A stretch of 40,379 bases of DNA from an uncultured Erysipelotrichaceae bacterium (GTDB lineage Bacteria > Bacillota_I > Bacilli_A > RFN20 > CAG-826). The translations under genes and the position numbers were made by a program. Shown in pieces: positions 10,415 through 40,094 of the stretch. Numbering within the stretch: the stretch's first letter is position 1; every line of letters begins with the position of its first letter. Under the pieces are notes generated by a model. It ran no database searches. It saw only the letters and a list, made by a program, of their open reading frames with translations, and had not been told where the DNA came from. The stretch is from assembly GCA_902800025.1 (NCBI GenBank), contig CADCDA010000011.1:1-40379 (forward strand). Reading direction: 5' to 3'.

Positions 10415-11915
10415 TGTTTTCTTTCTTCCTTAAAAATGAATGAACTAAATCTTCTTTTAGTAATCCTAAAATGAGTAAATACACAACTGCGTCAATTAAA
10501 ACTACACCAACGAGTTCAATAATCATTGCGACAGGAGTTCCTACATTAAAGGAAATAGCGAGATTATAAATTGGATTTTTGATGAGAAGTGTTAAGCCTG
10601 TAACCACCGCAGCAGAAACTAAGATTTTTAAACTGTTAAAGTTAAAAATAGCTTTCTTAATCCATTTCCATGTTACTGATACTAAGAACACTAAAATTAG
10701 TAAGTCAGTAACAGCGGTTCCTAAAGCAACTCCGATTGCAGGTCTATCTTTAAAAACAAACGCTCCAAAAACAATTGAGAAAACGATGTTTAAGATAGTG
10801 CCACCGACCAAGGCTATTAGATAATATTTTTCTTTCTTTGTTGGAAGGAGAATTTGACCGTAGATTATATCGCTTAACGAATATGTTATCATCATAGATG
10901 ATACAATTGCTAGTACTGCTGGAGCGTCTATATATCCTAATGATTCGCTGAAGTCTGTGTTACCAGAAATTAAACCAGTGATTGGCTTAGCTAATGTAGT
11001 CATTGTTGCTACAGCTGGTAAAACAATGAATAGACAAATATTCACCGAATACTCGTTAATGCGGTGGAAATACTTTTTGTCTTCTTGCGCATAACATATA
11101 GCGGCACGTGGGATGAACACGGTTGATAAAGCAGTAATCACTCCGATAATGACATCAATTCCTTTGATACCAACAGAATATGAGGCAACTTCGTTTTTGG
11201 TTTTATCAATAAAGCCAAGAATGAAAGTATCAGTTTGATTATATAAAGAAATGATTAACGAGATGGAACATAAGACAAGTAGTGGTTTGATCAATTCCTT
11301 AAAAGAATAAGGCATTGTTTTTCTTAAAGAAATGAACTTTCTTGCGTAAATGATATTAACAACACTGGTAATTAATGTACCAGATGCAGTTAATAATGCG
11401 TAAATATATAGATCTCCAGGAGCAGTGACAAATACGATGATTAAAATAGTGGTAACCGCTAAAATCGCAATTGTTCTAACGGACATATAGAATTGCTTTT
11501 CTAAAGCAATAAATAACCATTCAAAGGAGAAGGCTCCTGAAAGGAAGTTGATTGATAATAAGAAGATAATTTCTTTCGACCCTGCTAAATCTGGGACAGA
11601 AAACACTAAAGCGCACATTAATCCAAAGGATAATACTGTTGTAACTAATTGAATTAGAAAGAATGTTTGCACTTTATTCGATAATAGTTCTTTGTCGTCT
11701 TTAACTTTTACGCATTCCCTAATAGCGAGATTAGGAATACCGATTTTCGCTAAAACCAAAAAGTACAAAACAAAAGTATTGCACCAAGTATAAATACCAA
11801 CTGAACTAGCTCCCAAATATCTACAAACCCAAGGGAATGTGATAAAAGAAAGAATAGTCATTACTAAAGTACGAGAAATGTTGATGATTACGTTAGTACG
11901 GGTTCTATCTTCCAT
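10407..11915 (-). CDS. Polysaccharide flippase, Wzx/MATE-like (oligosaccharide translocase)
   Basis: This 502-residue protein has about 14 membrane helices and belongs to the polysaccharide biosynthesis (Wzx/RfbX) branch of the MOP superfamily, which flips lipid-linked repeat units across the membrane. Characteristic stretches are NVIINISRTLVMTI followed by FPWVCRYLGASSVGIY at the N terminus, NLAIRECVK, and the central NQTDTFILGF in helix 7. I place the start at ATG 11915 (MEDRTRTN); longer versions from 11942 or TTG 11966 would run through the promoter -10. No ribosome site is visible. It precedes the TupA-like gene in one transcript and is divergent from the glycosyltransferase at 12013. 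Length is at the upper end of normal for the family. Confidence 0.9.
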   Translation of the reverse strand: MEDRTRTNVIINISRTLVMTILSFITFPWVCRYLGASSVGIYTWCNTFVLYFLVLAKIGIPNLAIRECVKVKDDKELLSNKVQTFFLIQLVTTVLSFGLMCALVFSVPDLAGSKEIIFLLSINFLSGAFSFEWLFIALEKQFYMSVRTIAILAVTTILIIVFVTAPGDLYIYALLTASGTLITSVVNIIYARKFISLRKTMPYSFKELIKPLLVLCSISLIISLYNQTDTFILGFIDKTKNEVASYSVGIKGIDVIIGVITALSTVFIPRAAICYAQEDKKYFHRINEYSVNICLFIVLPAVATMTTLAKPITGLISGNTDFSESLGYIDAPAVLAIVSSMMITYSLSDIIYGQILLPTKKEKYYLIALVGGTILNIVFSIVFGAFVFKDRPAIGVALGTAVTDLLILVFLVSVTWKWIKKAIFNFNSLKILVSAAVVTGLTLLIKNPIYNLAISFNVGTPVAMIIELVGVVLIDAVVYLLILGLLKEDLVHSFLRKKENNA

Positions 11916-11924
11916 ATAGGCAAT

Positions 11925-11953
11925 ATTATAATCTTTATACATTATTTTTTGAA
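11925..11953 (-). promoter_or_regulatory. Promoter of the flippase gene, near-leaderless
   Basis: On the reverse strand TTCAAA (11953-11948), a 17-base spacer and TATAAT (11930-11925) lie nine bases before ATG 11915. The predicted leader is three bases or less, with no ribosome site. Confidence 0.55.
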
Positions 11954-11977
11954 AACAAATTTTCAAAGCTCTTTGTA

Positions 11978-12012
11978 TTCATATTAATAACCGTTTTTGA
12001 TATCATATACCT
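11978..12012 (+). promoter_or_regulatory. Promoter of the glycosyltransferase gene at 12013, predicted leaderless
   Basis: TTCATA (11978-11983), a 17-base spacer and an extended -10, TGA-TATCAT (11998-12006), end exactly six bases before the ATG. No Shine-Dalgarno sequence is present. Confidence 0.6.
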
Positions 12013-13191
12013 ATGAAAATTCTTGTAGTGTGTCAATATTATTATCCAGAAAACTTCATCATTACACAGTTTGCAGAACAATTTGTGAAAGATGGTTATG
12101 AAGTTCATGTATTAACTGGAAAGCCAAACTATGGTTATGGTTATATTTTGCCTGCCTACAAAAATATCAACGAAGAAATTATTAATGGAGTTAATGTTCA
12201 TAGACTCAATATCTATCCGAGAAAGAAATCCAGATTGTCAATTATTCGAAACTATTTATCTTTCTGGAAACTATCAAAAAAGTGGGTTAGAAAATGCAAT
12301 ATTGAATTTGATTGTGTATACACTCTAGGACTTTCGCCAGTCACAATGTGTTCTGCAGGAAATATTTACGCTAATAAACACCATGTGCAACATATTATTC
12401 ATGTTTGTGACTTATGGCCAGAAAGTACAGTGGTCACTAACGCTGTAAAAGTTAAGTCAATTATGTATAAGGTCTTGCTTCAATGGTCGAGATCAATTTA
12501 TAAAAACGCCAGCAAAATTCTCATAACCTCTCCAAGTTTTGTTGAATATTTTAAGAATGTCCTCAAACTGCCAACTGAGAATATTTACTATGTCCCACAG
12601 GCATCAATGATTGAAGATAAAGATGTCATTCCTTATGAATATGGCGAAGGAACTCATATTCTTTATTGTGGCAATTTAGGCATTATTCAACTCATTCCTT
12701 TAATCACTGAATCAATGGACAAATTAAGAGATCAAGATATCTATTTCCACATTATTGGTATGGGACCAATGACTGATTTCCTTGTTAATGATATAAAGGA
12801 AAGAAGGTTAGGGAATAAAGTTATTTATCACGGTCCAATTATTGCTAAACATGCAGCGAGTTATTTTAAAAACGCTGATGCATTATATATATCTTTATCA
12901 GGTGATGGTGCAGTTGGAAAAACAATCCCTTCTAAACTTTTAATGTCGATGGCGTTTTCTAAACCAGTTGTTGGAGTTTTAAAAGGTGATGGTCGAGATA
13001 TCATCTCTGATTCTAGTGGTGGATTCCTTGCTGATGAAAACGCTGAATCTATTAAAAACGCCCTTATGGCGGTCCATAATCTTTCTAAGAAAGAAAAAGA
13101 ACGCTTGGGCGCTCTTAATCGTCGATATTATGAAGATCATTTCTCTTTAAGAGAAGTGACATCATTGATTGAGAAACATTTTAGCAAGTAG
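12013..13191 (+). CDS. Glycosyltransferase family 4, WbuB/WcaI-like
   Basis: This 392-residue GT-B fold enzyme begins with the family's Rossmann segment MKILVVCQYYYPE and the adjacent VHVLTGKPNYGYG loop, which are typical of WbuB-like transferases that add aminosugars to lipid-linked intermediates. The C-terminal half has HILYCGNLGIIQ (nucleotide-sugar domain start), FHIIGMGPM, VIYHGPI, and the donor-binding KTIPSKLLMSMAFSKPVVGV with the expected lysine and the GG pair in DSSGGFLADENAES. It is probably cytoplasmic and builds the repeat unit that Wzx exports. Its predicted mRNA starts at the ATG. Its 3' end overlaps the oppositely oriented glycosyltransferase gene by 30 bases. Sugar donor and acceptor cannot be read from the sequence. 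Confidence 0.88.
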   Translation: MKILVVCQYYYPENFIITQFAEQFVKDGYEVHVLTGKPNYGYGYILPAYKNINEEIINGVNVHRLNIYPRKKSRLSIIRNYLSFWKLSKKWVRKCNIEFDCVYTLGLSPVTMCSAGNIYANKHHVQHIIHVCDLWPESTVVTNAVKVKSIMYKVLLQWSRSIYKNASKILITSPSFVEYFKNVLKLPTENIYYVPQASMIEDKDVIPYEYGEGTHILYCGNLGIIQLIPLITESMDKLRDQDIYFHIIGMGPMTDFLVNDIKERRLGNKVIYHGPIIAKHAASYFKNADALYISLSGDGAVGKTIPSKLLMSMAFSKPVVGVLKGDGRDIISDSSGGFLADENAESIKNALMAVHNLSKKEKERLGALNRRYYEDHFSLREVTSLIEKHFSK

Positions 13192-14319
13192 TTCCTCGTC
13201 GATTTGATGATTTATACTTTCAAGTGATGTATATTGCATCACTTTATTTTTGCCTAAAATTGATAAAATCTCTCTATCTGTTCGTCTGATTTCTAAAGCT
13301 TTTTTCATAGCTTCATATAAATCTTCTACATCGCCAGTTTTTGCCCAAATGATGCATGGGCCATAGTGTTCTTTTAATAATTCGTTTTCAACAGTGATTG
13401 TTAAACATCCATTAGCAAGATATTCAAGAGTTTTGCTTGGGATTGAATATTGATCGATTTTTGGATCAATTGGTCGAGGATTAACGGCAAGAATTGAGTG
13501 CTTTTCTAAAGAAAGGTTTTCGGCATAACTAATAGGGCCAAGATAAATAATATTGTTATATCCATCGATTGCGGGATAAAGTCTTTCTTTTTCTAAGTGG
13601 TGACCACATATGATTAACTTTAAATCTGATCTTTCTAACTTTTTAAAGGCCTCAATTAAGTTTAAAAGCCCATATTTCTTCATTAATGAACCACCGAAGT
13701 AGATATAATCGCCATTAATTTTTGGTTCTAAGTATTTTGATGGAATCTCAGAAACACCATCGATACAAATAAATGGTTTCTTATTAACGTTATATAGTTC
13801 GTTTAATTTCTTTGTTAAAACAATATAACCATCTAATGTTTGTCCAAGTTCCACGAGTTTCTTTGTAAGTTTCTTTTTTCCAAAGGAAATATTGTATGGA
13901 GAATCTGTACAAATACCAATGATTGGCATTTTGAATTTCTTACGATATTTTATAGCGGTTCTTAATAAAGAAAAGTTCAGTACATCAACAAAAATCAAAC
14001 TGCTATCTTGCATTGTAATATCTGTTACTCTTTTAAAGAGTTTAAAATATTTGCTAATTCTATTTCTAGTTACTAGAGGATATTTCCAAAAGATATTTCC
14101 TTCTCTAATAATCTTTGCTTCTAACTTTTTATATTTATAGCGTCTATTAATAGCACGAACGGAAATAACGTCAATATCATGAGATAACGCTAAAGAACGG
14201 ATAAGCTTGTTGTGGAAATTTTGATTAGAAAGATTTGGCGAAACGCTCCATCCTTCAAGATATTCTTTGAATGAATCGTTATCCATTGCATTTGTAAAAT
14301 AGATATATTTATTTTCCAT
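13162..14319 (-). CDS. Glycosyltransferase, GT4-like
   Basis: This 385-residue protein looks like a GT-B glycosyltransferase. The N-terminal half is divergent and includes IDVISVRAINRRYKYK and MPIIGICTDSPYNI. The C-terminal half shows the nucleotide-sugar binding pattern: GDYIYFGGSLMKKYGLLNLIEAFKKL split around residues 200-225, LKLIICGHH, IIYLGPISYAE and SIPSKTLEYLANGCLTITVE with the conserved Ser/Lys/Glu positions. It has no membrane segment and probably acts on the inner face of the membrane in repeat-unit assembly. AGGAGA precedes the ATG, and its start overlaps the upstream glycosyltransferase end by 11 bases, so the two form a transcript. It ends in TGA and overlaps the convergent gene by 30 bases. 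Confidence 0.83.
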   Translation of the reverse strand: MENKYIYFTNAMDNDSFKEYLEGWSVSPNLSNQNFHNKLIRSLALSHDIDVISVRAINRRYKYKKLEAKIIREGNIFWKYPLVTRNRISKYFKLFKRVTDITMQDSSLIFVDVLNFSLLRTAIKYRKKFKMPIIGICTDSPYNISFGKKKLTKKLVELGQTLDGYIVLTKKLNELYNVNKKPFICIDGVSEIPSKYLEPKINGDYIYFGGSLMKKYGLLNLIEAFKKLERSDLKLIICGHHLEKERLYPAIDGYNNIIYLGPISYAENLSLEKHSILAVNPRPIDPKIDQYSIPSKTLEYLANGCLTITVENELLKEHYGPCIIWAKTGDVEDLYEAMKKALEIRRTDREILSILGKNKVMQYTSLESINHQIDEELLAKMFLNQ

Positions 14320-15397
14320 AAACTTCTCCTAATATTTGATAGATTGATTTTGCGCTGTTTTCAAATGTGTTACTTCTTGCGCTTTCTAAAGCATTAACAG
14401 ATAGGGAATCGCCTATTTCATCCATTTTCTTAGCAATTTCATTATTGTCTTCGAGACTAACAATATAGCCATTATAACCATCAACAATGTATTCGAGCGA
14501 ACTTATGACGTTATTGGATGAGATAACTGGTAATCCGTTTGCAAATGCCTCAAGTACAGTGTGTCCGAATATGTCTTGCTTTGACAAAGTGATATGAACA
14601 TCGCATGCTTTGTATAAGTCGAAAAGCTCTTCCTTCTTCATAAAATCAAGAACTACAACGTTATTCATACTGTTGTCTTCAATAAATTTGAGATATTTTT
14701 CTTTTTCAGGTCCTTCACCCACCAAAACAAGATAATCGTTTCTATTAGTAAATAGAGATAAAAGCTGCATATTGTTTTTTCTTTCGATGAATTGGCAGGC
14801 ATTAATAAAGATTTTTTTGTCTAATGGAAGATTGAATCTCTTTCTTAAATCAGTTTTATCTTTGATAGGAGAAGCAAGAATTTCCTTTTCGCGAAGGTTA
14901 CTATAAATATATTTATAGATGTTGTTCTTGTTTGCCCCGTAATATTCTAAATATTTACTTGCGTACCTAGATGGAGACATATAGAAGTCGGCTTTATTCA
15001 CTAGCGATGTTTTATATAACTTTTTTAAAACGCTTTCTTTTTTAACAACCCCACCGTTAATCATGAGACCGAATTTGATGTGATGCTTATGAAGATATCT
15101 AATAGCTTTAATTTCAGCAAAATGACTATAGCCATTCATAATAATGATGTCGAATTCATGGTGGTGTTCTTTAATATACTTACGAGGGCCATTAGAAATA
15201 GTACCTTCATTACCGATATAGCCATCCTTTAAAAAGATTGCATTAAACTTATATTCATTAGCGTCATAAAAAGAGTCTGGACGATCTTTAGCCTTGGTTC
15301 TTTCAAATAGAACAGTTAAGTCACAGTATTTTGATAGTTCGTTAAATGCTTTAACTTTATATGGGGCTGGATGATTAAAGATAATCAATACTCGCAT
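14309..15397 (-). CDS. Glycosyltransferase family 4
   Basis: This 362-residue GT-B glycosyltransferase is the first gene of a two-gene reverse-strand unit. The N-terminal Rossmann start MRVLIIFNHPAPYKVKAFNEL is typical of surface-polysaccharide transferases. The C-terminal domain has KIFINACQFIERKNNMQLL, DYLVLVGEGPEKEKY, NNVVVLDFMKKEELFDLY and the donor-binding segment ITLSKQDIFGHTVLEAFANGLPVISSN, in which the acidic residue and the E in VLEAFANG correspond to the EX7E motif. The ATG at 15397 follows a TATAAT by six bases and has no ribosome site, so the mRNA is predicted to be leaderless. The sugar used is unknown. Confidence 0.9.
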   Translation of the reverse strand: MRVLIIFNHPAPYKVKAFNELSKYCDLTVLFERTKAKDRPDSFYDANEYKFNAIFLKDGYIGNEGTISNGPRKYIKEHHHEFDIIIMNGYSHFAEIKAIRYLHKHHIKFGLMINGGVVKKESVLKKLYKTSLVNKADFYMSPSRYASKYLEYYGANKNNIYKYIYSNLREKEILASPIKDKTDLRKRFNLPLDKKIFINACQFIERKNNMQLLSLFTNRNDYLVLVGEGPEKEKYLKFIEDNSMNNVVVLDFMKKEELFDLYKACDVHITLSKQDIFGHTVLEAFANGLPVISSNNVISSLEYIVDGYNGYIVSLEDNNEIAKKMDEIGDSLSVNALESARSNTFENSAKSIYQILGEVYGK

Positions 15398-29867: not shown

Positions 29868-30164
29868 ATGAAAAAAGTTGATAAAGAAACTTTAAAATTA
29901 GCTGCTCAACATTTGATGTTTGAAATGTCGGATGAAGAGTATGAAAGTCTTTTGGCGGACTTCGATTCAATAATTTCTAAAATGAAGATTCTTGGTGAAA
30001 TTGAAGGAATCGATGATGTTGAGCCAATGACTTTTCCTTTTGATGTGACCAATTCGTATTTAAGGGAAGACATTGCAGGTGAACCTTTAACTAGAGAAGA
30101 TGCACTTAAAAATGCGAAAGACATTCATAACGGAATGATTGGACTACCGAGGGTTGTTAAATAA
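29868..30164 (+). CDS. gatC: Asp-tRNA(Asn)/Glu-tRNA(Gln) amidotransferase subunit GatC
   Basis: GatC (98 residues) is the small stabilising subunit of GatCAB and wraps around the GatA-GatB interface. Its pattern is typical: an N-terminal helix (KETLKLAAQHLMFEMSDEEYESLLADF), the DVEPMTFPFDVTNSYLREDIAGEPLTREDALKNA belt, and a short end (GMIGLPRVVK). The start is 6 bases after the ligA stop with no strong ribosome site, and its stop overlaps gatA by one base. It begins the gatCAB set. Confidence 0.93.
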   Translation: MKKVDKETLKLAAQHLMFEMSDEEYESLLADFDSIISKMKILGEIEGIDDVEPMTFPFDVTNSYLREDIAGEPLTREDALKNAKDIHNGMIGLPRVVK

Positions 30165-31618
30165 TGCGATACATGGATAAAAACTTAAGAGAGATTCATA
30201 ACGCGATTATTTCTAACAGTGTCACTCCTTTAGAATTGGTCAAAGAGGCAATTGAACTCGCTAAAAATGATGATAACAATGCTTTTGAATATATCTGTGA
30301 AAAAGAAGCCTTAGAAAAAGTAAGAAAATTAGATCCAAGCAAAAAGAATAACTTGCTTTATGGAATTCCGGTTGTTATCAAAGATAACATATCTACGAAA
30401 GATATTCCAACAACCGCTAGTAGTGACTTATTAAAAGATTATGTTCCTGTTTTTGATAGTGAAGTAGTAACTAGACTAGAGAATGAAGGTGCTATTATCA
30501 TTGGAAAAACTACAATGGATGAATTGGCGATGGGTGGAACAGGTACTTCTGGCCATTTAGGAACGACATACAATCCTTGGGATAAAACAAAAACAAGAAT
30601 CATCGGTGGTTCAAGTTCAGGAAGTGCAGCTGCTATAAGCGCTGGAGTCGTTCCAATTGCTATTGGTAGTGATACAGGTGATTCAATAAGAAAACCAGCC
30701 TCATATGCCTCATTAGTTGGCTTTAAACCGACATGGGGAAGAATATCTAGGTTTGGATTGTTCCCATTTGCGCCTTCTTTTGATCATGTCGGCTATTTTA
30801 CAAGAAATGTTTATGATAGTGCTTATCTTCTTAATATTCTTGCCGGAAGAGATGATAAAGATTCCTCTTCTTCGTTTGAACCAATTGAAGATTACACAAA
30901 ACATTTAGAAGACAAACTCGAAGGAACAAGAATAGCAGTCATTAATGGTGTTATTGATAATGTGAGTGATAAAGAAATACTTAATTCGTTTAATAAATCG
31001 ATTGAATATTTAAGACAAAACGGAGCGATAGTAGACTATGTTGATATCGATTTGATATTATTAGAAGCTATACAACCTACATATTTCATTATTTCAAGTT
31101 CAGAATCAACATCAAATAACGCTAATTTGGATGGAATAAAATTTGGAAGTAGAATTGAAGGAAAAACGCTTGAAGAAGTAATGGTTAATACGAGAACAAA
31201 TGGTTTTTCAAGGCGTATTAAAGATCGTTTTATCATCGGCAGTTATTCAATGCTTGAGGAAAATCGAAATGAGTTATTTATCAGAGCACAAAAGTGTCGA
31301 AGACTAATCGTAAACGCCTTCAATAATGTGTTTGAAAAGTATGACGCGATCTATTGTCCTGCTGCTCCGACAATTGCGCCAAAAATTAATCTAAAAGAAG
31401 ACACTGTTTTTAATAAAGTAAATATTTCAGAGCACTATATGGCGTTTGCTAATATGGGTGGATTCCCTTCAATAACTCTTCCGCTTGGATTTGAGAATTC
31501 TATGCCTTTTGGAGGAAATTTATCGTCAAAACCCTTCCAAGAGAGCAAATTGTTTAATATTGCAAATTATATAGAAAAGGGCACTGGACTATCTGATAAG
31601 GTGGCAAAAAGAGACTAA
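30164..31618 (+). CDS. gatA: Asp-tRNA(Asn)/Glu-tRNA(Gln) amidotransferase subunit GatA
   Basis: GatA (484 residues) is the glutaminase subunit, an amidase-signature enzyme. The Ser-cisSer-Lys triad is visible: Lys73 in VVIKDNI, Ser150 in GGSSSGSAAA and nucleophile Ser174 in SDTGDSIRKPAS. In most bacteria that last motif reads DTGGSIRQPAS, so the Asp173 replacing Gly and the Lys177 are deviations; as far as I recall they also occur in Mollicute GatA, which suggests either ancestry or transfer. ATG 30164 shares one base with the gatC stop and follows GAGGG; an in-frame ATG lies at 30173. Ammonia from GatA is channelled to GatB to amidate Glu-tRNA(Gln) or Asp-tRNA(Asn). Confidence 0.94.
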   Translation: MRYMDKNLREIHNAIISNSVTPLELVKEAIELAKNDDNNAFEYICEKEALEKVRKLDPSKKNNLLYGIPVVIKDNISTKDIPTTASSDLLKDYVPVFDSEVVTRLENEGAIIIGKTTMDELAMGGTGTSGHLGTTYNPWDKTKTRIIGGSSSGSAAAISAGVVPIAIGSDTGDSIRKPASYASLVGFKPTWGRISRFGLFPFAPSFDHVGYFTRNVYDSAYLLNILAGRDDKDSSSSFEPIEDYTKHLEDKLEGTRIAVINGVIDNVSDKEILNSFNKSIEYLRQNGAIVDYVDIDLILLEAIQPTYFIISSSESTSNNANLDGIKFGSRIEGKTLEEVMVNTRTNGFSRRIKDRFIIGSYSMLEENRNELFIRAQKCRRLIVNAFNNVFEKYDAIYCPAAPTIAPKINLKEDTVFNKVNISEHYMAFANMGGFPSITLPLGFENSMPFGGNLSSKPFQESKLFNIANYIEKGTGLSDKVAKRD

Positions 31619-31619
31619 T

Positions 31620-33038
31620 ATGGAACTCAGAGCAATTATTGGTTTAGAAATACACGTCGAGATGAATACTAAGTCCAAAATGTTTTCTGATGCACCAGTT
31701 AGTTTTGGTCAACTTCCTAACACTCAAGTAAGTGCTTTTGATATGTCCTTTCCAGGGACTATGCCAACTGTCAATAAACAAGCTGTTATTAACGCGATTA
31801 GAGTGTCTAATGCTCTAAATATGACTATTGATAACGTTTTGATGTTTGATCGAAAGAATTATTTTTATAGCGACCTTCCAAAAGGGTATCAAATAACACA
31901 ATATTTTAGACCGATTGGTAGAAATGGGTGTCTAACCTTCAATAGTGGTGATGAAAACATTACAATTAATATCGAAAGATTACATTTAGAAGAAGATACA
32001 TGCAAGCAATTCCATGTCGACGATTTCTCTTATCTTGACTTTAACCGCGCTGGTATTCCTGTTATCGAAATTGTTACAAAACCTGAGTTTAAATCAGGAC
32101 AAGAAGTTAGAAAATTCGTTGAGTTAATTCGCTCAATAGTTGTTTTCTTGGATGTTAGTCATGGAAAAATGGAAGAAGGAAATATACGAGTCGATTTAAA
32201 TGTTTCCCTCGAGGATGATAATAAAAGATGGAGTAAAGTAGAAATTAAAAACCTCAATTCATTGTCTAATATTGAAAAAGCGATTAACTACGAAGTAAAT
32301 AGACAAAAAGATTTAGTAATTAAAGGTAAAACAATTGGTAGAGAAACGAGAAGATATGATGAAACAAACGATCGTACAGTCATGTTGCGCATAAAAACCG
32401 ATTCAGTTGATTATCGTTATTTTACTGATCCAAACATTCCCCCAATTAAGTTGAGTGATGAATTTATTAAAAATGCAATTGATACTTCGCCAGAATTAGC
32501 ACACGTTAAGCAAAAAAAATATAAAACTTTAGGTCTTAGCGATTATGATGCGAATCTTATTACTAATAGTAAAGAAACATGTGCTTATTTTGAAAAAGGT
32601 TTAGAAACTGGATGTTCACCAAAGACGTTAGCGAACTGGATAAATATTCAAGTTCAAAAAGTTTTAAAACTGAAATGTATTTCTATAAATGAGTTTTCAA
32701 TTTCTGCTAAAGAATTAGGAGAACTAATTTTGCTTGTTGAGGAACATAAAATTAATAACAGCCAAGCTAAATCAGTATTTAATGAGGCAGTTGAAACTGG
32801 AAATAGTGTTATTGATGTCATCAATAAAAATAAAACAAACCATATATTGGATGAGAATGAAATACTTGATTTAATTAAAGAAATCATTAATTCAAATCAA
32901 AATTTAGTAAATGACTATAAGAACGGCAAAGAGAAAGTGGTAGGATATATAGTTGGGCTGGTTATGAGTAAAACACAAAGGAAAGCAGACCCATCATTAA
33001 CAAATAAACTAACAGTTGTAGAGTTGAGAAGGAGATAA
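31620..33038 (+). CDS. gatB: Asp-tRNA(Asn)/Glu-tRNA(Gln) amidotransferase subunit GatB
   Basis: GatB (472 residues, normal length) phosphorylates and amidates the misacylated tRNA using ammonia from GatA. Family blocks are IIGLEIHVEMNTKSKMFSDAP, NRKNYFYSDLPKGYQITQ (with Asp where DRKNYFYPDLPKGYQ is usual), RLHLEEDTCKQFH, DFNRAGIPVIEIVTKPEF, HGKMEEGNIRVDLNVSL and the C-terminal YqeY-like helical domain that contacts tRNA. The segment MLRIKTDSVDYRYFTDPNIPPI resembles Mollicute versions more than Bacillus ones. It follows gatA by one base. Confidence 0.94.
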   Translation: MELRAIIGLEIHVEMNTKSKMFSDAPVSFGQLPNTQVSAFDMSFPGTMPTVNKQAVINAIRVSNALNMTIDNVLMFDRKNYFYSDLPKGYQITQYFRPIGRNGCLTFNSGDENITINIERLHLEEDTCKQFHVDDFSYLDFNRAGIPVIEIVTKPEFKSGQEVRKFVELIRSIVVFLDVSHGKMEEGNIRVDLNVSLEDDNKRWSKVEIKNLNSLSNIEKAINYEVNRQKDLVIKGKTIGRETRRYDETNDRTVMLRIKTDSVDYRYFTDPNIPPIKLSDEFIKNAIDTSPELAHVKQKKYKTLGLSDYDANLITNSKETCAYFEKGLETGCSPKTLANWINIQVQKVLKLKCISINEFSISAKELGELILLVEEHKINNSQAKSVFNEAVETGNSVIDVINKNKTNHILDENEILDLIKEIINSNQNLVNDYKNGKEKVVGYIVGLVMSKTQRKADPSLTNKLTVVELRRR

Positions 33039-33040
33039 AA

Positions 33041-34060
33041 ATGGCAATTTTAGTAACAGGTGGAACAGGCTATATCGGTAGCCATACAGTGGTTGAATTA
33101 CTTAATAATGGATATGATGTCGTAATCGTCGATAATTATGTTAATTCCAAACCAGAAGTTTTGAACAGAATCGAGAAAATTACCGGCAAAAGACCAAGAT
33201 TTTACGAGATTGATGTCTGTAACGAAGACAAAATGCGTGAATTATTCAAGAAAGAAAAGATTACCGATATCATTCATTTTGCTGGATTAAAGAGCGTTGG
33301 AGAATCAACTCAAAAACCAGGACTTTACATTAGAAACAACATTGGCTCAAGTATCGTTTTATTAAACTTAATGGCAGAATTTGATGTAAGAAATATCGTT
33401 TTCTCTAGTAGTGCGACAGTTTATGGTGTCCCAGACCATGTCCCTTTAAAAGAAGATGACAAGATTGGTGGATGCACAAATCCTTATGGACAAACCAAAC
33501 TTGAAATCGAATACATGCTTAAGGATTACGCAAACGAACATCCAGAAGCTAATATTGCTATTTTAAGATATTTCAATCCGATTGGCGCTCATGAAAGTGG
33601 ACTTATTGGCGAAGATCCACAAGGTATTCCAAATAACTTAATGCCATACATTACTCAAGTTGCAGTTGGTAAAAGACCATTCTTAAATGTATTTGGTAGC
33701 GATTACAATACTCCAGATGGCACTGGTGTAAGAGATTATATCCATGTTGTCGATTTAGCAAACGGTCATTTAGCGGCTCTAAAGAAATTAGAAGAGAAAC
33801 CAGGCCTAGTCATTTATAACTTAGGAACAGGTAAAGGCACATCAGTGTTAGATTTAGTGAAAGCTTTTGAAAAAGCAAATAACATTAAAGTCCCTTACGA
33901 AATCAAAGATCGCCGTCCAGGCGATGTTGATGAAAATTATGCAGATGCATCAAAAGCATTTAAAGAAATGGGATGGAAAGCAAACCTCAGCATAGTTGAT
34001 GCATGCCGCGATTCATGGAATTGGCAGAAAAATAATCCAAAAGGATATGATGTAGACTAG
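33041..34060 (+). CDS. galE: UDP-glucose 4-epimerase
   Basis: GalE (339 residues, normal length) is an NAD-dependent short-chain dehydrogenase that interconverts UDP-glucose and UDP-galactose. It has the Rossmann motif TGGTGYIGSH (6-15), FAGLKSVGES, SSSATVYG with the catalytic Ser, the NPYGQTK Tyr-x-x-x-Lys pair, RYFNPIGAHESGLIGEDP and the C-terminal GTGKGTSVLDLV. It probably supplies UDP-galactose to the polysaccharide locus or the Leloir pathway. AAGGAG precedes the ATG, three bases after gatB. A promoter for the downstream tRNA may lie inside its 3' end. Confidence 0.95.
   Translation: MAILVTGGTGYIGSHTVVELLNNGYDVVIVDNYVNSKPEVLNRIEKITGKRPRFYEIDVCNEDKMRELFKKEKITDIIHFAGLKSVGESTQKPGLYIRNNIGSSIVLLNLMAEFDVRNIVFSSSATVYGVPDHVPLKEDDKIGGCTNPYGQTKLEIEYMLKDYANEHPEANIAILRYFNPIGAHESGLIGEDPQGIPNNLMPYITQVAVGKRPFLNVFGSDYNTPDGTGVRDYIHVVDLANGHLAALKKLEEKPGLVIYNLGTGKGTSVLDLVKAFEKANNIKVPYEIKDRRPGDVDENYADASKAFKEMGWKANLSIVDACRDSWNWQKNNPKGYDVD
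34021..34051 (+). promoter_or_regulatory. Possible tRNA-Arg promoter inside the galE 3' end
   Basis: TTGGCA (34021-34026), a 19-base spacer and TATGAT (34046-34051) lie in the last codons of galE. The predicted start (about 34058) is 15 bases before the tRNA. The spacer is longer than ideal. Confidence 0.4.
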
Positions 34061-34072
34061 TTCTACACCTTT

Positions 34073-34149
34073 GCGCTTATAGCTCAGCTGGACAGAGCAT
34101 CTCCCTCCTAAGGAGAGGGTCGGACGTTCGAATCGTCTTAAGCGCGCCA
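34073..34149 (+). tRNA. tRNA-Arg (anticodon CCT)
   Basis: A 77-base tRNA has a 7-bp acceptor stem (GCGCTTA/TAAGCGC), discriminator G, encoded CCA, D-arm AGCTCAGCTGGACAGAGC, anticodon stem TCTCC/GGAGA with loop CTCCTAA (anticodon CCT, reading AGG) and T-loop TTCGAAT. Terminator follows. Confidence 0.97.
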
Positions 34150-34161
34150 CTTAGGATTTTT

Positions 34162-34186
34162 GGCTCAGAAAAACTGAGCCTTTTTT
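34162..34186 (+). terminator. Terminator after tRNA-Arg
   Basis: GGCTCAG (34162-34168) pairs with CTGAGCC (34174-34180), loop AAAAA, followed by TTTTTT. It ends the pcrA-to-tRNA transcript. Confidence 0.92.
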
Positions 34187-34202
34187 GTTGCTTTCTTTCA
34201 TT

Positions 34203-34208
34203 TATAAT
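34203..34208 (+). promoter_or_regulatory. -10 element of the DUF362 gene
   Basis: A perfect TATAAT (34203-34208) lies 18 bases before ATG 34227; the region at -35 is the T-run of the previous terminator. The predicted start near 34215 falls at the AAGGAGG ribosome site. Confidence 0.4.
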
Positions 34209-34226
34209 AATTAAGGAGGATTATTT

Positions 34227-35110
34227 ATGACTAAATCAAAAGTATATTTTTCTCGTCAATTGACACCTGAGAGAGTTATTGATTTATATAAAGCAGTTGG
34301 ATTAGAACTCAAAGGTAATATTGGCGTTAAAGTGCATTCTGGAGAAGATGGAAATCAAAACTATTTAAGACCAGAATTCTTAAAACCAATGGTTAATTAT
34401 GTTAATGGCACTATTATTGAATGTAATACCGCATATGATGGTGCCAGAAATACAAGCGAAAAACATAAGAGATTATTTGAAAAACACGGTTGGTATAAAC
34501 ATTTCCCTGTTGATTTAATGGACGAAAATGATGATGACCTTGTTTTAGATATTCCAAATGGCAAAGTAATTAAAAAAGACTATGTTGGCAGTCATCTTGA
34601 TCGATATGATTCAATCCTCGTTTTGGTTCACTTTAAAGGACACCCTATGGGTGGATATGGTGGAGCATTAAAACAATTATCTATCGGTTTTGCTTCTAGT
34701 AGAGGAAAAGCATATATCCATTCTGCAGGAAGAACAACCGATCAATATGATTTATGGAATGATTTACCAGAACAAAATAAATTCCTTGAAGCAATGGCGG
34801 ATTCTGCTAGTGCAGTCCATAAAAATTCAAGGGCAGAATTGTTTATATTTCAATGATGTGCAACATGTCTGTTGATTGTGACTGTGTATCTAATGCAGAA
34901 GACCCATGTCTTAAAGACATTGGTATTCTTGCTTCTACCGATCCAATTGCAATAGACCAAGCTTGTCTTGATTTAGTTAATAAGTCTAACGATCCTGGTG
35001 TTAGTCATTTCTTAGAAAGAGTTAACACAAGAAATGGTGTTCACACGATAGAAGCCGCTAGTGAATTGGGCTTTGGAAATAGAGAATACGAACTAATTGA
35101 TATCGATTAA
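34227..35110 (+). pseudogene. DUF362 family protein, frameshifted
   Basis: Two adjacent frames together make one DUF362-type protein of about 294 residues. The first (34227-34856) carries the family core including GHPMGGYGGALKQLSIGFASSRGK and the HSAGRT motif. Its last 13 codons (after HKN) look unrelated. Reading one base back near 34815-34825 (CATAAAAATTCAAG) restores F-K-G-R-I-V-Y-I-S-M and leads straight into the second frame (34853-35110), which contains MSVDCDCVSNAEDPCLKDIGILASTDPIAIDQ. So one base has been lost in or next to the A5/T2 run. No standard X-XXY-YYZ slippery site is in frame, so a real mutation or an assembly error is likelier than programmed shifting. The version lacks the C-terminal ferredoxin domain of many relatives. 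Function is unknown. AAGGAGG precedes the start. Confidence 0.85.
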
Positions 35111-35140
35111 AATAAGACTCCACTTGGTGGAGTTTTATTT
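35109..35140. terminator. Bidirectional terminator
   Basis: ACTCCAC (35117-35123) pairs with GTGGAGT (35127-35133), loop TTG, with A-rich 5' and TTTATTT 3' flanks. It lies between the DUF362 gene and the convergent FAD oxidoreductase gene. Confidence 0.88.
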
Positions 35141-36580
35141 GATAAATTTAACAATCTCGTTAGCGGATAGTAAGGCAGTAGGAGTTCCACCTATCGACCT
35201 AGTCCATTGGCCGATAAGGAACATATTTTTTATTCCCTTTATCTTACCATTATTAATGTAGTATGTACTTTTATTTGTGAAGGAAAATGACTGGAAAGAG
35301 CCGTATGATGTGTTAACTCGTTTATTAAGTTCAATTGGTCCAAAACACGTAAGAAACTCGGTCTTTTCTTTAAAATGATGGTATCTTATTAGGAAAGAAT
35401 CAATCATATCTTTAATAATTCTTTCTTTTTCTTTTTTGTATGATTTCTCATCTAATGAACGATAAAACATATAGTCATTGTGGTCTTGATCAATAAATAA
35501 AGAAATAACAGTTTTTCCATCTTTAATAAAATTTGAATCGTAATAATATGGTCTCACTAACATGAAGTCAGTTTCTTTTTCTCCAACTTTTATTGGTGAA
35601 ATATGTAAACCAGTTGGGACATCAATATTACTTATATCGCCTTCAACAGTTATATAGACGTTAAAACAAGAAGAAATTGTATTCTTATCAATATTACTAT
35701 CGAGCGATTTATATAATCTTGAACTATATTTACCTTTTAATAATTTGTTATATGTGTAATAAGGATCAATCGCAGAGATAACATAATCCGCTTTTAAAGT
35801 TCCATTATTAGTTTTAACAGCATGAGCTTTTCCATCCTTAACAATTACTTCTTCTACGGTTCTATTTAGTAAAAGAGTGCCACCGAGTTCTAAGAACTTA
35901 TTCTTCATTCTTTCAACCATATATAAAGCGCCACCTTCTGGGATATCGCCGTTTCCTTTAGAAAATATTCCATATAAATCAAAAAAGAAAAACATGTTGT
36001 TATATCCAGCTTGTGAATGGGTGATTGCAAATTTTAATGCAGGAGAAACAAAGTTTTGAGCGTATTCTTCTCTTGATTGCTTCATCGACATTATTATTTG
36101 TTTAGATAGTGGTGATAACTTAATTAAGTCAATCGCTTTCGCTCTGCGACTATCTTTCGACATAGCGATATTCATCAAGTTCGCTACTGCTTTTACTGTT
36201 TCAAAGAATTGATGAATAGCCTTCTTATCAATTGGCGATATATTCATCCATTCTTCTTCTGCTTTATCTAAATCACGATGGAAAGTAATAGTGGTGCCTT
36301 CATATTCAAAAGAGCCTAACGATGGTAAAGAAATAATATTTACATCATTAGATAACGCTCCTACTTCATTCCAAAGGTCATTGATATTATTTCCTTCTTG
36401 GGTACCCATTAACCAATGTAAGCAAATATCGACATAGTGATCATTAACAAAAAAGCCAGAGCAAAGACCTCCGACATTTTCGTTTTTTTCAATTAAAAAT
36501 ACTTCATGACCTTTATTTTGTAATTTGATTGAGGCCGCTAAGCCTGCTATACCTGCTCCAATGACGATTACTTTGGCCAT
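35135..36580 (-). CDS. FAD/NAD(P)-dependent oxidoreductase, phytoene desaturase-like
   Basis: This 481-residue flavoprotein belongs to the CrtI/phytoene desaturase-related amino oxidase superfamily. The FAD-binding Rossmann motif VIVIGAGIAGLAASIKL is at the N terminus with the following acidic LIEKNENVGGLCSGF; ADYVISAIDPY and the C-terminal NMFLIGQWTRSIGGTPTALLSANEIVKF complete the flavin site. The protein lacks a signal peptide. Such proteins occur widely in Firmicutes without carotenoid genes, and none are here, so the substrate is unknown. It starts seven bases after the glnS stop with no clear ribosome site and is probably translated from the glnS transcript. Confidence 0.87.
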   Translation of the reverse strand: MAKVIVIGAGIAGLAASIKLQNKGHEVFLIEKNENVGGLCSGFFVNDHYVDICLHWLMGTQEGNNINDLWNEVGALSNDVNIISLPSLGSFEYEGTTITFHRDLDKAEEEWMNISPIDKKAIHQFFETVKAVANLMNIAMSKDSRRAKAIDLIKLSPLSKQIIMSMKQSREEYAQNFVSPALKFAITHSQAGYNNMFFFFDLYGIFSKGNGDIPEGGALYMVERMKNKFLELGGTLLLNRTVEEVIVKDGKAHAVKTNNGTLKADYVISAIDPYYTYNKLLKGKYSSRLYKSLDSNIDKNTISSCFNVYITVEGDISNIDVPTGLHISPIKVGEKETDFMLVRPYYYDSNFIKDGKTVISLFIDQDHNDYMFYRSLDEKSYKKEKERIIKDMIDSFLIRYHHFKEKTEFLTCFGPIELNKRVNTSYGSFQSFSFTNKSTYYINNGKIKGIKNMFLIGQWTRSIGGTPTALLSANEIVKFIK

Positions 36581-36587
36581 AAATAAT

Positions 36588-38243
36588 TTAGTTATTTGCA
36601 GGATTAAAAGAAGATTTTAAAGAACAGGTTCTATTAAAGATAAGATGTTCTTTGCTTGATAATTTATCAGTGCAATAATAACCAGTTCTAATGAATTGGA
36701 ATCTATCTAATGGTTTTGTATCTTTTAAAGAAGCTTCAACAAAGCCTTCTTTTTTCTCCCAAGAATTTGGATTGAGTCTTTCTAAGAAGTCTTTTCCTTT
36801 TGTTTCTTCTGTTTCATCAAAGATGAGTGGCTCAAACAAATTAAATGTCGCTGGTAAAGCAGTAGTGGCTTCAACATAATGAATTGTTCCATTTGGTTTT
36901 CTTGCTTCAAACCCGCTTCCTGATTTTGTTTCAGGATCGTATGTACAGTGGATTTCAGTGATATTACCATCAACGTCTTTAACCACACTATTGGCTTTAA
37001 TGAAATAAGCGTGCATTAATCTGACTTCATCACCCAATGATAATCTCTTCCACTTGCGATTTGGTTTTTCTTCAATGAAATCTCCTCTTTCGATATATAG
37101 ATATTTGCCAAACGCCATTTTACGGTTACCGAGTGCTTCGTTTTCCATATTATTTGGAGCGTCAACATATTCGATTTGTCCTTCAGGATAGTTGTCGATA
37201 ACAACTTTAACTGGATCTAAAACCGCCATTGGACGAGTGGCTTTCATCTTTTGTTCTTCTTTTAAGAAGAAATCGAGATTATCAGCGTTTGTAGTACTAT
37301 TGATTCTTGATAAACCGGTATAAAGGATAAAACTCTTAATGGCTTCTGGAGTGAATCCTTTTCTTTTTAAACCAACAAGTGTTGGCATTCTTGGATCGTC
37401 ATATCCAGTGACATAACCACCTTCCACTAATTGACGGAGATATCTTTTAGACATCACGGTGTTTGTGATATTGAGTCTACCCCATTCATATTGGTGTGGG
37501 ATGTGTTCCATTTCACATTTTTCAACAAACCAATCATATAAGACACGATGGTTATCATATTCTAATGAACAAAGGGAATGTGTTACCCCTTCAAAGGCAT
37601 CTTGTAATGGGTGAGCAAAATCATACATTGGGTAAATGCACCATTTATCGCCTTGGCGGTGGTGTTTAACGTGTAGGATTCGATACATAACAGGGTCACG
37701 CATATTAATATTTGGAGAAGACATATCGATTTTTGCTCTCAATGTTTTTTCTCCGTTAGCGTATTTGCCTGCTCTCATCTCTTCAAATAACTTGAGGTTT
37801 TCTTCAACGCTTCTATTTCTGCATGGAGAAGGAATTCCTGGCTCGGTTAATGTTCCACGGTATTTAGTCATTTCTTCTGGAGATAAATCATCAACGTACG
37901 CCAAACCTTTTTTAATTAAAAGGATGGCTTTTTCATAAGTCTTCTCAAAATAATCGCTTCCGAAGAAAATGTTTTTTGGTGTGTAACCAAGCCATTTTAA
38001 ATCTTCGATAATCGCGTCGACATATTCAGCACCTTCATTAACAGGATTAGTGTCATCAAATCTAAGATTTGTGTAACCACCAAAAGCTTTCGCTAATTCA
38101 AAATCATTAACGATTGCTCTCGCGTGACCGATATGTAAATAAGCATTTGGTTCAGGTGGAAAACGTGTGACGATTTGCTTTACACGGCCTTCTTCAAGGT
38201 CTTTTTCCATGATTGTTTTAATAAAATTATTGATTTCTTCCAT
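36588..38243 (-). CDS. glnS: Glutaminyl-tRNA synthetase
   Basis: GlnRS (551 residues, normal length) is a class Ic synthetase that charges tRNA-Gln directly. It has TRFPPEPNAYLHIGHARAI with the HIGH sequence at 37-40, NLRFDDTNP, PMYDFAHPLQDAFEGVTHSLCSLEY and VMSKRYL (the KMSKS-equivalent loop), then a C-terminal beta-barrel anticodon domain starting about residue 340. These details match GlnRS and not bacterial GluRS. GAGGA lies 9 bases before the ATG. The promoter is TTGAAC-16-TAAAAT. The FAD oxidoreductase follows in the same transcript. Confidence 0.96.
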   Translation of the reverse strand: MEEINNFIKTIMEKDLEEGRVKQIVTRFPPEPNAYLHIGHARAIVNDFELAKAFGGYTNLRFDDTNPVNEGAEYVDAIIEDLKWLGYTPKNIFFGSDYFEKTYEKAILLIKKGLAYVDDLSPEEMTKYRGTLTEPGIPSPCRNRSVEENLKLFEEMRAGKYANGEKTLRAKIDMSSPNINMRDPVMYRILHVKHHRQGDKWCIYPMYDFAHPLQDAFEGVTHSLCSLEYDNHRVLYDWFVEKCEMEHIPHQYEWGRLNITNTVMSKRYLRQLVEGGYVTGYDDPRMPTLVGLKRKGFTPEAIKSFILYTGLSRINSTTNADNLDFFLKEEQKMKATRPMAVLDPVKVVIDNYPEGQIEYVDAPNNMENEALGNRKMAFGKYLYIERGDFIEEKPNRKWKRLSLGDEVRLMHAYFIKANSVVKDVDGNITEIHCTYDPETKSGSGFEARKPNGTIHYVEATTALPATFNLFEPLIFDETEETKGKDFLERLNPNSWEKKEGFVEASLKDTKPLDRFQFIRTGYYCTDKLSSKEHLIFNRTCSLKSSFNPANN

Positions 38244-38353: not shown

Positions 38354-38429
38354 GGGTCCGTAGCTCACCTGGGAGAGCGCCTCCATGGCATGGAGGAGGT
38401 AGCGAGTTCGATCCTCGTCGGATCCACCA
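38354..38429 (+). tRNA. tRNA-Ala (anticodon GGC)
   Basis: A 76-base tRNA has acceptor stem GGGTCCG/CGGATCC with a G-U pair, encoded ACCA end, D-arm GCTCACCTGGGAGAGC, anticodon stem CCTCC/GGAGG with loop ATGGCAT (anticodon GGC) and T-arm GCGAG-TTCGATC-CTCGT. Confidence 0.96.
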
Positions 38430-38555: not shown

Positions 38556-40094
38556 ATGAAAAGATTAAGCGTTATTGGCATTTCTATTGGTGGCACTAAA
38601 ACAGCAGTGGTCCATGCTTATTTTGATGGCAACTTTACTAATATTGAAAAGAAAGTGTTTTCCTCTAGTCCAAATAATCCAAATCAAGAAATGGATGATA
38701 TCTTTAAAGCAATTAAAAGATTTGATTATCCAATCGACGTTATTTCATTAATAACTGGTGGTCCACAAGACACTCAAAAAGGATTACTACTTAAACCTCC
38801 ACATTTACCAGGATTTGATAATTATTCAATCGTAGATATCCTAAAGGATAAATATCACTGCGATGTTTATTATTTAAATGATGCTGATGCCTGTGCTTTA
38901 GCGGAATTTAAATATGGAGCAGGTCAAGGATATAAAAACATGGCCTATCTAACATTTGGCACTGGGATTGGCTCTGGTTTTATCTTAGATAACAAACTTT
39001 ATACTGGCCATAACGGTATGGCGGGAGAAATAGGTCATGTTAGATTAAGTGAAAATGGACCAATTGGATATAATAAACCTGGATCAGTAGAAGGCTATGT
39101 TGCAGGTGGCAATATTTGTGTATGGGCAAAAGACTTTATTATAAATAAAGACACTAATTTAAATAAATATAAAGAATTGACCACTAAAGATATTGCTATT
39201 GAGGCTAATAAAGGCGATAAAACAGCCTTAGAAATATTTGATGAAGTCGCTAATAGATTAGGCGAAGCAATCTCAATTTTATTAGACATTCTTAATCTAG
39301 ATATAGTAGTTATCGGTGGCATTTATCCAAGATGCCTCAATTTACTTGAAGATAAAGTTAAAAAATCAGTAAAAAAGAATGCGATTAAAAATAATTTTAA
39401 TGTCGCTAAAATATTGCCTTCTAAATTAGGTGAAAAGATTGATGATTATTCCTCATTAGTAGGAATCTTATTAGGAGAAGATATGAAAACATTTTATGAA
39501 CGTTACCCAGAATTATTACCTCAAAAAGATAATATTGAATCAGCGATTGTTATATTAACTAACTGCTATAAAAACAACGGCAAAATTTTAGTGTGCGGCA
39601 ATGGTGGTTCTAGTAGTGATTCCGCACATATAGTTGGTGAATTAATGAAGAGTTTTATGGCAAAACGACCGCTAGATGAGGGACTATTGAATAAAATTAA
39701 TCAAGAATTCGATATTGATGTCGCTAGCAAATTACAAACTGGTATCCCTTGTATTGATTTGACCGCTCAAAGCGCTTTATTGACTGCGTTTGCCAATGAT
39801 GTTGATCCTGATTTAATCTTTGCACAACAAGTTGTGGCGTATTCTTCACATAACCCAAATGATGTTGTAATTGGCTTATCAACATCAGGCAATTCTAAGA
39901 ATGTTGTTAATGCGATTAAAGTTGCTAAATCATTGGGCTTAAAAACCATCTCATTAACTGGTAAAGAAGATAGCTTATTATCTAAAGAATCGATGGTCAC
40001 TATTAAAGCGCCAGAAAAAGAAACATTTAAAGTTCAAGAATACCACTTACCAATCTATCACTATATTTGTATGGAGCTTGAAAAGCGCATCTAA
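38556..40094 (+). CDS. ROK-family sugar kinase fused to a GmhA-like SIS isomerase
   Basis: This protein (512 residues from ATG 38556) joins two enzymes. Residues 1 to about 310 are a ROK kinase: ISIGGTKTAVV (phosphate loop), NDADACALAEFKYG with the catalytic Asp, LTFGTGIGSGFILD and GMAGEIGHVRL. The usual zinc-binding CxCGxxGCxE motif is replaced by GPIGYNKPGSVEGY, so zinc is probably absent. Residues about 325-512 are a SIS domain like phosphoheptose isomerase: LVCGNGGSSSDSAHIVGELMKSF, FANDVDPDLIFAQQV, GLSTSGNSKNVVNAI and a terminal EYHLPIYHYIC helix with the catalytic His. A kinase feeding a ketose/aldose phosphate isomerase is suggested. I chose ATG 38556 over TTG 38511 because it sits at the usual distance from the ROK motif; neither has a ribosome site. 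Confidence 0.88.
   Translation: MKRLSVIGISIGGTKTAVVHAYFDGNFTNIEKKVFSSSPNNPNQEMDDIFKAIKRFDYPIDVISLITGGPQDTQKGLLLKPPHLPGFDNYSIVDILKDKYHCDVYYLNDADACALAEFKYGAGQGYKNMAYLTFGTGIGSGFILDNKLYTGHNGMAGEIGHVRLSENGPIGYNKPGSVEGYVAGGNICVWAKDFIINKDTNLNKYKELTTKDIAIEANKGDKTALEIFDEVANRLGEAISILLDILNLDIVVIGGIYPRCLNLLEDKVKKSVKKNAIKNNFNVAKILPSKLGEKIDDYSSLVGILLGEDMKTFYERYPELLPQKDNIESAIVILTNCYKNNGKILVCGNGGSSSDSAHIVGELMKSFMAKRPLDEGLLNKINQEFDIDVASKLQTGIPCIDLTAQSALLTAFANDVDPDLIFAQQVVAYSSHNPNDVVIGLSTSGNSKNVVNAIKVAKSLGLKTISLTGKEDSLLSKESMVTIKAPEKETFKVQEYHLPIYHYICMELEKRI

What the first reader, a model, noticed from the sequence alone, without database searches (positions are those of the whole stretch)
38556..40094. ROK kinase fused to a GmhA-like SIS isomerase, with the ROK zinc cysteines lost
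Both domains keep their catalytic motifs, but the ROK CxCGxxGC zinc motif is replaced by a Gly/Pro-rich sequence without cysteine. A phosphoheptose-isomerase-like domain coupled to a sugar kinase could make an unusual sugar phosphate for the surface polysaccharide or salvage a sugar. I do not know of a characterised enzyme with this architecture.
Basis: partly seen in the sequence, partly recalled or inferred. Interest (0 to 1): 0.7.

Follow-up and report, generated by a model that had tools for sequence, protein, structure and literature searches.

The report
Fused sugar kinase and sugar-phosphate isomerase
A gut/rumen bacterium carries one protein that joins a sugar kinase to a sugar-phosphate isomerase; its relatives sit beside mannose-releasing enzymes, so it probably carries mannose into glycolysis in two steps, a new combination of familiar parts that has not been tested in the laboratory.

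Summary
Window 38556-40094 (+) is one intact 512-aa frame: ROK kinase (residues 6-293) followed by a GmhA-type SIS isomerase (about 310-512). It is no frameshift or missed stop. The fusion recurs full length in five other genomes, and both domains and the linker are under purifying selection. Some relatives carry the two halves as adjacent genes, twice in frame and split by a single stop codon.

The zinc-cysteine loss is real but is not special to the fusion: all 16 members of this ROK clade lack the cysteines, and other zinc-less ROK kinases are known.

The surface-polysaccharide reading is not supported. Related stand-alone SIS genes do sit in heptose clusters, but ROK-SIS loci look catabolic: many lie beside GH38 alpha-mannosidases, GH2 beta-mannosidases, a GH130 mannoside phosphorylase or a monosaccharide ABC transporter. 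In a congener the clade's ROK stands alone, beside a type I mannose-6-phosphate isomerase.

Best explanation (about 0.55): a bifunctional mannokinase / mannose-6-phosphate isomerase, mannose to Man6P to Fru6P. The substrate is inferred, not shown. The window's genome also keeps a ManA, and the locus itself has no mannosidase neighbour. No published ROK-SIS enzyme was found. Novelty: new variant of a known kind.

The parts
38556..40094 (+). ROK-SIS fusion protein, 512 aa, ATG to TAA
   Evidence: recurs in L004, L015, L016, L017, L092; purifying selection
38571..39434 (+). ROK sugar-kinase domain (residues 6-293), probable mannokinase
   Evidence: PF00480 E 6e-46; fold match to ROK kinases; in a 16-member ROK clade, support 100/100
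38880..38882 (+). D109, predicted catalytic base of the kinase (NDA motif)
   Evidence: alignment with E. coli ROK kinases
39057..39110 (+). Gly-rich loop (residues 168-185, GPIGYNKPGSVEGYVAGG) in place of the ROK zinc motif
   Evidence: alignment; no zinc cysteines in any of the 16 clade members
39473..39485 (+). AGGAG and ATG (Met310) at the start of the SIS half: probable relic ribosome-binding site and start codon of a once separate gene, possibly still used
   Evidence: same arrangement in fusions L015 and L016, weaker in L004; unfused relatives G436, G154, G249, G442 carry a purine-rich Shine-Dalgarno-like site at the same point
39483..40091 (+). GmhA-type SIS isomerase domain (residues 310-512), probable mannose-6-phosphate isomerase
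   Evidence: PF13580 E 2.7e-21; best solved relatives are phosphoheptose isomerases; all four zinc ligands kept

Best explanation
A bifunctional catabolic enzyme. The N-terminal ROK domain phosphorylates free mannose with ATP to mannose 6-phosphate, and the C-terminal zinc-dependent GmhA-type SIS domain isomerises it to fructose 6-phosphate, which enters glycolysis. The mannose would come from intracellular breakdown of mannosides (GH38, GH2, GH130 partners) or from monosaccharide uptake. The fusion arose when the stop codon between two adjacent, co-translated genes was lost. Shown: domain content, intact catalytic residues, recurrence, selection, gene neighbourhoods, the unfused arrangement in relatives. 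Inferred: both activities, the substrate, and the direction of flux.
For: (1) Neighbours of ROK-SIS pairs or fusions: GH78-GH38-fusion (L017, L092); GH38 directly after ROK-SIS (G436), where both GH38 genes of the genome lie within 5 kb; GH38 about 6 kb away plus GH78 (G154); GH2 whose best function-named solved relatives are beta-mannosidases (G442, G448), and a similar GH2 by Pfam (G449); GH112 then GH130 (G015), that GH130 being closest among function-named chains to beta-1,4-mannooligosaccharide phosphorylase. GH38 or GH130 within 5 kb: 4 seen, 0.29 expected (P 2e-4; 3e-3 without a near-copy), a post hoc test. (2) In the window's own genus, G004 has the same-clade ROK without SIS, directly behind a type I mannose-6-phosphate isomerase; its ROK is sister to the ROK of G249, which is paired with SIS (98/95). 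ManA seems to stand where SIS stands. (3) ROK plus ManA is a known pair: B. subtilis gmuE-gmuF in the glucomannan operon (PMC11669640; that GmuE is a ROK protein is from general knowledge). (4) G373 pairs ROK-SIS with an RbsABC-like transporter, as expected for a free monosaccharide. (5) GmhA makes a manno-configured aldose phosphate from a ketose phosphate; Man6P is the one-carbon-shorter analogue (established chemistry). (6) All six Clostridial ROK-SIS genomes lack type I ManA; five of them have GH38 and the sixth, G442, has the beta-mannosidase-like GH2.
Against: No activity is known for any member. The window locus has no mannosidase neighbour (tRNA-Ala before it, contig end after it), and none was seen at G009 or L015. 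The window's genome, G009, G249, G154 and G418 also encode a type I ManA elsewhere. Lack of ManA is also common in genomes without ROK-SIS, so it is not diagnostic. The SIS halves are not one clade: they intermingle with SIS proteins of heptose clusters, and no residue was found that separates hexose from heptose use. GH78, GH112, RhaB and RhaD nearby fit a broader diet than mannose. In G249 the first zinc-ligand His of SIS is Pro.
Confidence: 0.55

Rival explanations
1. Same catabolic kinase-isomerase logic, but on another aldose (for example glucose, allose, talose, or an N-acetylhexosamine) rather than mannose.
For: ROK kinases vary in substrate; the best NCBIfam match is the glucokinase family, far below its cut-off; loci also hold GH78, GH112, GH29, GH43 and GH3; G373 has only a general monosaccharide transporter.
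Against: The enzymes seen repeatedly beside it, and ManA beside the G004 ROK, point to mannose. No AlsE, NagA, NagB or NanE was recognised in the inspected loci (translations read by eye; Pfam run on a subset).
Confidence: 0.22
2. Heptose salvage: ROK phosphorylates free D-glycero-D-manno-heptose at O7 and the SIS domain runs the GmhA reaction backwards to sedoheptulose 7-phosphate for the pentose phosphate pathway.
For: The SIS domain keeps all GmhA zinc ligands and shares its inserted loop with SIS proteins in HddA-type heptose clusters.
Against: No heptosidase or heptose transporter is recognisable; GH38 and GH130 neighbours are mannoside enzymes; G004 pairs the same kinase with ManA, which has no heptose role known to me.
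Confidence: 0.12
3. SIS half is not an isomerase but a lyase or dehydratase like MurQ or NagS, or a regulator.
For: SIS domains include etherases and the GlcNAc-6P dehydratase NagS (PMC12680351).
Against: MurQ models score far lower than GmhA models; GmhA zinc ligands intact; NagS is MurQ-related and reported only from Streptomycetaceae.
Confidence: 0.06
4. Biosynthetic: the SIS domain makes heptose 7-phosphate for a surface polysaccharide and the kinase modifies it.
For: GmhA-type SIS; polysaccharide genes elsewhere in the window.
Against: No HddA hit in the window's genome and only partial nucleotidyltransferase hits to an HddC-like query; kinase of the wrong kind (ROK, not GHMP or PfkB); no GmhB, HddA or HddC recognised beside any ROK-SIS locus read.
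Confidence: 0.05

Closest known systems
GmhA, sedoheptulose 7-phosphate isomerase (TIGR00441, PF13580)
   Same: SIS family, zinc ligands H358/E362/Q494/H502, phosphate loop
   Different: Fused to a kinase, extra loop of about 25 residues (shared with heptose-cluster SIS of Bacillota), catabolic setting, no heptose genes recognised at ROK-SIS loci; below the equivalog cut-off
ROK sugar kinases (PF00480): glucokinase, Mak, NanK, NagK, GmuE
   Same: ATP-binding GGTK, catalytic Asp, ExGH motif, fold
   Different: No zinc cysteines; separate 16-member clade; fused to an isomerase in six sampled genomes
B. subtilis gmuE-gmuF (fructokinase plus mannose-6-phosphate isomerase)
   Same: Sugar kinase and aldose-phosphate isomerase encoded together in a mannan-utilisation operon
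   Different: Isomerase is a type I mannose-6-phosphate isomerase, not SIS; two separate proteins
SIS-type phosphomannose isomerases (archaeal PGI/PMI; DmPMI of Dehalococcoides, PMC4720418)
   Same: SIS-family enzymes that act on mannose 6-phosphate
   Different: Closest to archaeal PGI/PMI, another branch of the SIS superfamily; no kinase domain
Fusobacterium nucleatum NanK (PMC5458393)
   Same: ROK kinase without the zinc motif, other signature motifs kept
   Different: Single domain, assigned to N-acetylmannosamine

Membership tests
ROK sugar kinase family | PF00480 match above gathering score | tested here: met
   157.7 bits against 22.9
ROK sugar kinase family | GGTK loop, catalytic Asp, ExGH motif | tested here: met
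   residues 12-15, D109, E158-H161
ROK sugar kinase family | CxCGxxGCx(E/D) zinc motif | tested here: not met
   GYNKPGSVE; absent in all 16 clade members. Known to be absent in some ROK kinases (PMC5458393), so not required for membership
GmhA-type SIS | PF13580 match and four zinc ligands | tested here: met
   76.5 bits against 27; H358, E362, Q494, H502
GmhA, sedoheptulose 7-phosphate isomerase (equivalog) | TIGR00441 equivalog cut-off | tested here: not met
   129.7 bits against 209.45
GmhA, sedoheptulose 7-phosphate isomerase (equivalog) | heptose pathway partners (HddA, HldE, GmhB, HddC) | tested here: inconclusive
   HddA not found in the window's genome; an HddC-like query gave only partial nucleotidyltransferase hits; HldE and GmhB not searched
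Mannokinase / mannose-6-phosphate isomerase | activity on mannose and Man6P | not testable with these tools
   inferred from gene neighbourhoods only
Type I mannose-6-phosphate isomerase (ManA) | PF20511 catalytic domain | tested here: not met
   absent from the Pfam hits of the fusion; the proposal is functional analogy, not membership
NagS / MurQ lyases | MurQ-type model above cut-off | tested here: not met
   37.7 bits against 255

The most novel reading that the evidence does not exclude
A new class of mannose-6-phosphate isomerase, evolved from the GmhA branch of SIS proteins and fused to a zinc-free ROK mannokinase, gives a one-protein mannose-to-fructose-6-phosphate route in rumen and gut Bacillota, and the gene may also make free isomerase from an internal start at Met310.
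Probability: 0.4. Interest if true: 0.55.

Novelty: new variant of a known kind. Interest (0 to 1): 0.42.

Why it matters
Many Bacillota carry GmhA-like genes that automatic annotation is likely to call phosphoheptose isomerase. If those paired with ROK kinases are mannose-6-phosphate isomerases, it would explain how mannoside-degrading Clostridia without ManA use mannose, correct many annotations, and give a compact two-step enzyme. The series from adjacent genes, to in-frame genes split by one stop, to a fusion is also a clean example of how a bifunctional enzyme forms.

Tried and rejected
Frameshift, missed stop or assembly chimera: rejected (six genomes, low dN/dS). Zinc loss as a peculiarity of this fusion: rejected (whole clade). 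The inserted SIS loop as a mark of ROK pairing: rejected, heptose-cluster SIS proteins have it too. Lack of ManA as proof: rejected, it is as common in genomes without ROK-SIS, and five ROK-SIS genomes have ManA. One origin of the ROK-linked SIS: not supported by the tree. NagS-type dehydratase: unlikely (PMC12680351). The structure prediction was weak (mean pLDDT 64.9, much of the SIS half under 60) because only four sequences were used; it confirmed the ROK fold only, so the zinc sites were judged from alignments. Literature searches found no ROK-SIS enzyme, in an open-access library only. Note: an earlier count gave wrong coordinates for the internal start; the right ones are AGGAG 39473-39477 and ATG 39483-39485 (Met310).

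Full report
Observation. Window 38556-40094 (+) reads as a single 512-aa frame with an ATG start and a TAA stop. Pfam assigns ROK (PF00480, residues 6-293, E 6e-46) and SIS_2 (PF13580, E 2.7e-21). The nearest solved sequences are phosphoheptose isomerases for the C-terminal half and ROK glucokinases and ManNAc kinases for the N-terminal half. The GmhA zinc ligands reported for Burkholderia (H64, E68, Q175, H183; PMC5705639) align with H358, E362, Q494 and H502; the STSGNS phosphate loop is present. ROK motifs GGTK, ND and ExGH are present, and the zinc motif reads GYNKPGS.

Not an artefact. Full-length fusions occur in G009 (L004, 72%), L015 (77%), G015 (L005/L016, 67%), G417 (L017, 42%) and G445 (L092). 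Whole-protein dN/dS against the three nearest is 0.07-0.18; the domains and the linker region give 0.05-0.26, with dS near saturation.

How the fusion formed. Five relatives carry ROK and SIS as adjacent intact genes on one strand: G249, G154, G373, G436 and G442. G448 does too, with a small overlap, and G449 has a broken ROK frame followed by SIS. In G154 and G436 the two genes are in the same frame with one stop between them. In the fusions of the window, L015 and L016 the sequence TTAGGAGA followed by ATG survives at the start of the SIS half (window AGGAG 39473-39477, ATG 39483-39485, Met310), matching the Shine-Dalgarno-like sites and start codons of unfused relatives. The fusion is therefore best read as loss of a stop between translationally coupled genes. 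Internal initiation may persist; that is untested.

Zinc loss. In the ROK tree all SIS-linked ROKs plus four single ROKs form one clade (100/100). None of its 16 members has the zinc cysteines; most read GYGKxGSxEG. Zinc loss thus goes with the clade, not the fusion. Fusobacterium NanK also lacks the motif while its functional structural features are reported as uncompromised (PMC5458393).

SIS half. Stand-alone SIS relatives with the same inserted loop sit in heptose clusters: next to HddA-like GHMP kinases and HddC-like nucleotidyltransferases in G310, G111, G329, G298, G356 and G013, and next to HldE and GmhB in G005 (gene names from reading translations). In the SIS tree the ROK-linked members intermingle with these. 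Descent from a GmhA-like pool is clear; whether the fused forms keep heptose activity is open.

Context of ROK-SIS loci. GH38 directly beside (L017, L092, G436); GH38 about 6 kb away plus GH78 (G154); GH2 beside (G442, G448, G449; for G442 and G448 the best function-named solved relatives are beta-mannosidases); GH112 then GH130 (G015); RbsABC-like transporter (G373); ABC transporter, GH3 and SGNH hydrolase (G249); GH29, RhaB, RhaD and a SASA-type esterase (G009); SASA esterase (L015). GH38 or GH130 within 5 kb was seen 4 times against 0.29 expected; this test was framed after seeing the loci. In the window's genus, G004 has the same-clade ROK (50% identical) with ManA directly upstream and no SIS beside it. 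Type I ManA is absent from all six Clostridial ROK-SIS genomes, but also from 24 of the other 25 genomes of that order, and it is present in the window's genome.

Mechanism. Most likely: mannose + ATP to Man6P (ROK), Man6P to Fru6P (SIS). The kinase-isomerase pair of the B. subtilis glucomannan operon, gmuE-gmuF (PMC11669640), shows that such pairing in mannan use is known; S. pneumoniae also has a ROK gene among mannosidase genes (PMC5215778). SIS-type phosphomannose isomerases exist in another branch (PMC4720418), so a GmhA-branch one is plausible but would be new. Confidence 0.55. Rivals: other aldose (0.22), heptose salvage (0.12), lyase or regulator (0.06), heptose biosynthesis (0.05).

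Limits. The window locus itself has no informative neighbours: GlnS and a CrtI-like protein on the other strand, tRNA-Ala 38354-38429 upstream, contig end 285 bases after the stop codon. Many neighbour functions rest on reading translations, with Pfam run on a subset. The structure model was weak in the SIS half. HldE and GmhB were not searched in the window's genome. The relatives whose record titles are shown are mostly metagenome assemblies.

Verdict. Real and intact; a new variant of a known kind, with a testable mannose hypothesis. Moderate interest.

Noticed in passing
window 39473-39485: AGGAG five bases before an in-frame ATG (Met310) at the start of the SIS half, matching the start region of unfused relatives; possible internal translation start.
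   Followed up: partly
L046 (G249) 7538-8158: The SIS protein paired with ROK has Pro in place of the first zinc-ligand His (ASDSSPLVGEL); it may be altered or inactive.
   Followed up: no
L053 (G134) 8058-9524: A 488-aa HAD-like phosphatase fused to a GmhA-type SIS domain, beside a PfkB/HldE-like kinase: another unusual SIS fusion.
   Followed up: no
L101, L102 (G438, G437): GmhA-like SIS gene next to a rhamnulokinase-like gene in genomes that carry the ROK alone elsewhere.
   Followed up: no
L073, L074, L070 (G002, G012, G249): A different ROK subfamily, with zinc cysteines, directly follows ManA in the same genus and family.
   Followed up: partly
window 1893-5552: 1219-aa protein with an Endonuclease I domain and several bacterial Ig-like domains, probably a surface or secreted nuclease.
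   Followed up: no
window 9503-15397: Surface-polysaccharide genes: TupA-like ATP-grasp, flippase, three glycosyltransferases.
   Followed up: no
window 30164-38243: GatA and GatB and a glutamine-tRNA ligase (GlnS) in one window: both routes to Gln-tRNA seem to be present, GatAB perhaps serving Asn-tRNA.
   Followed up: no
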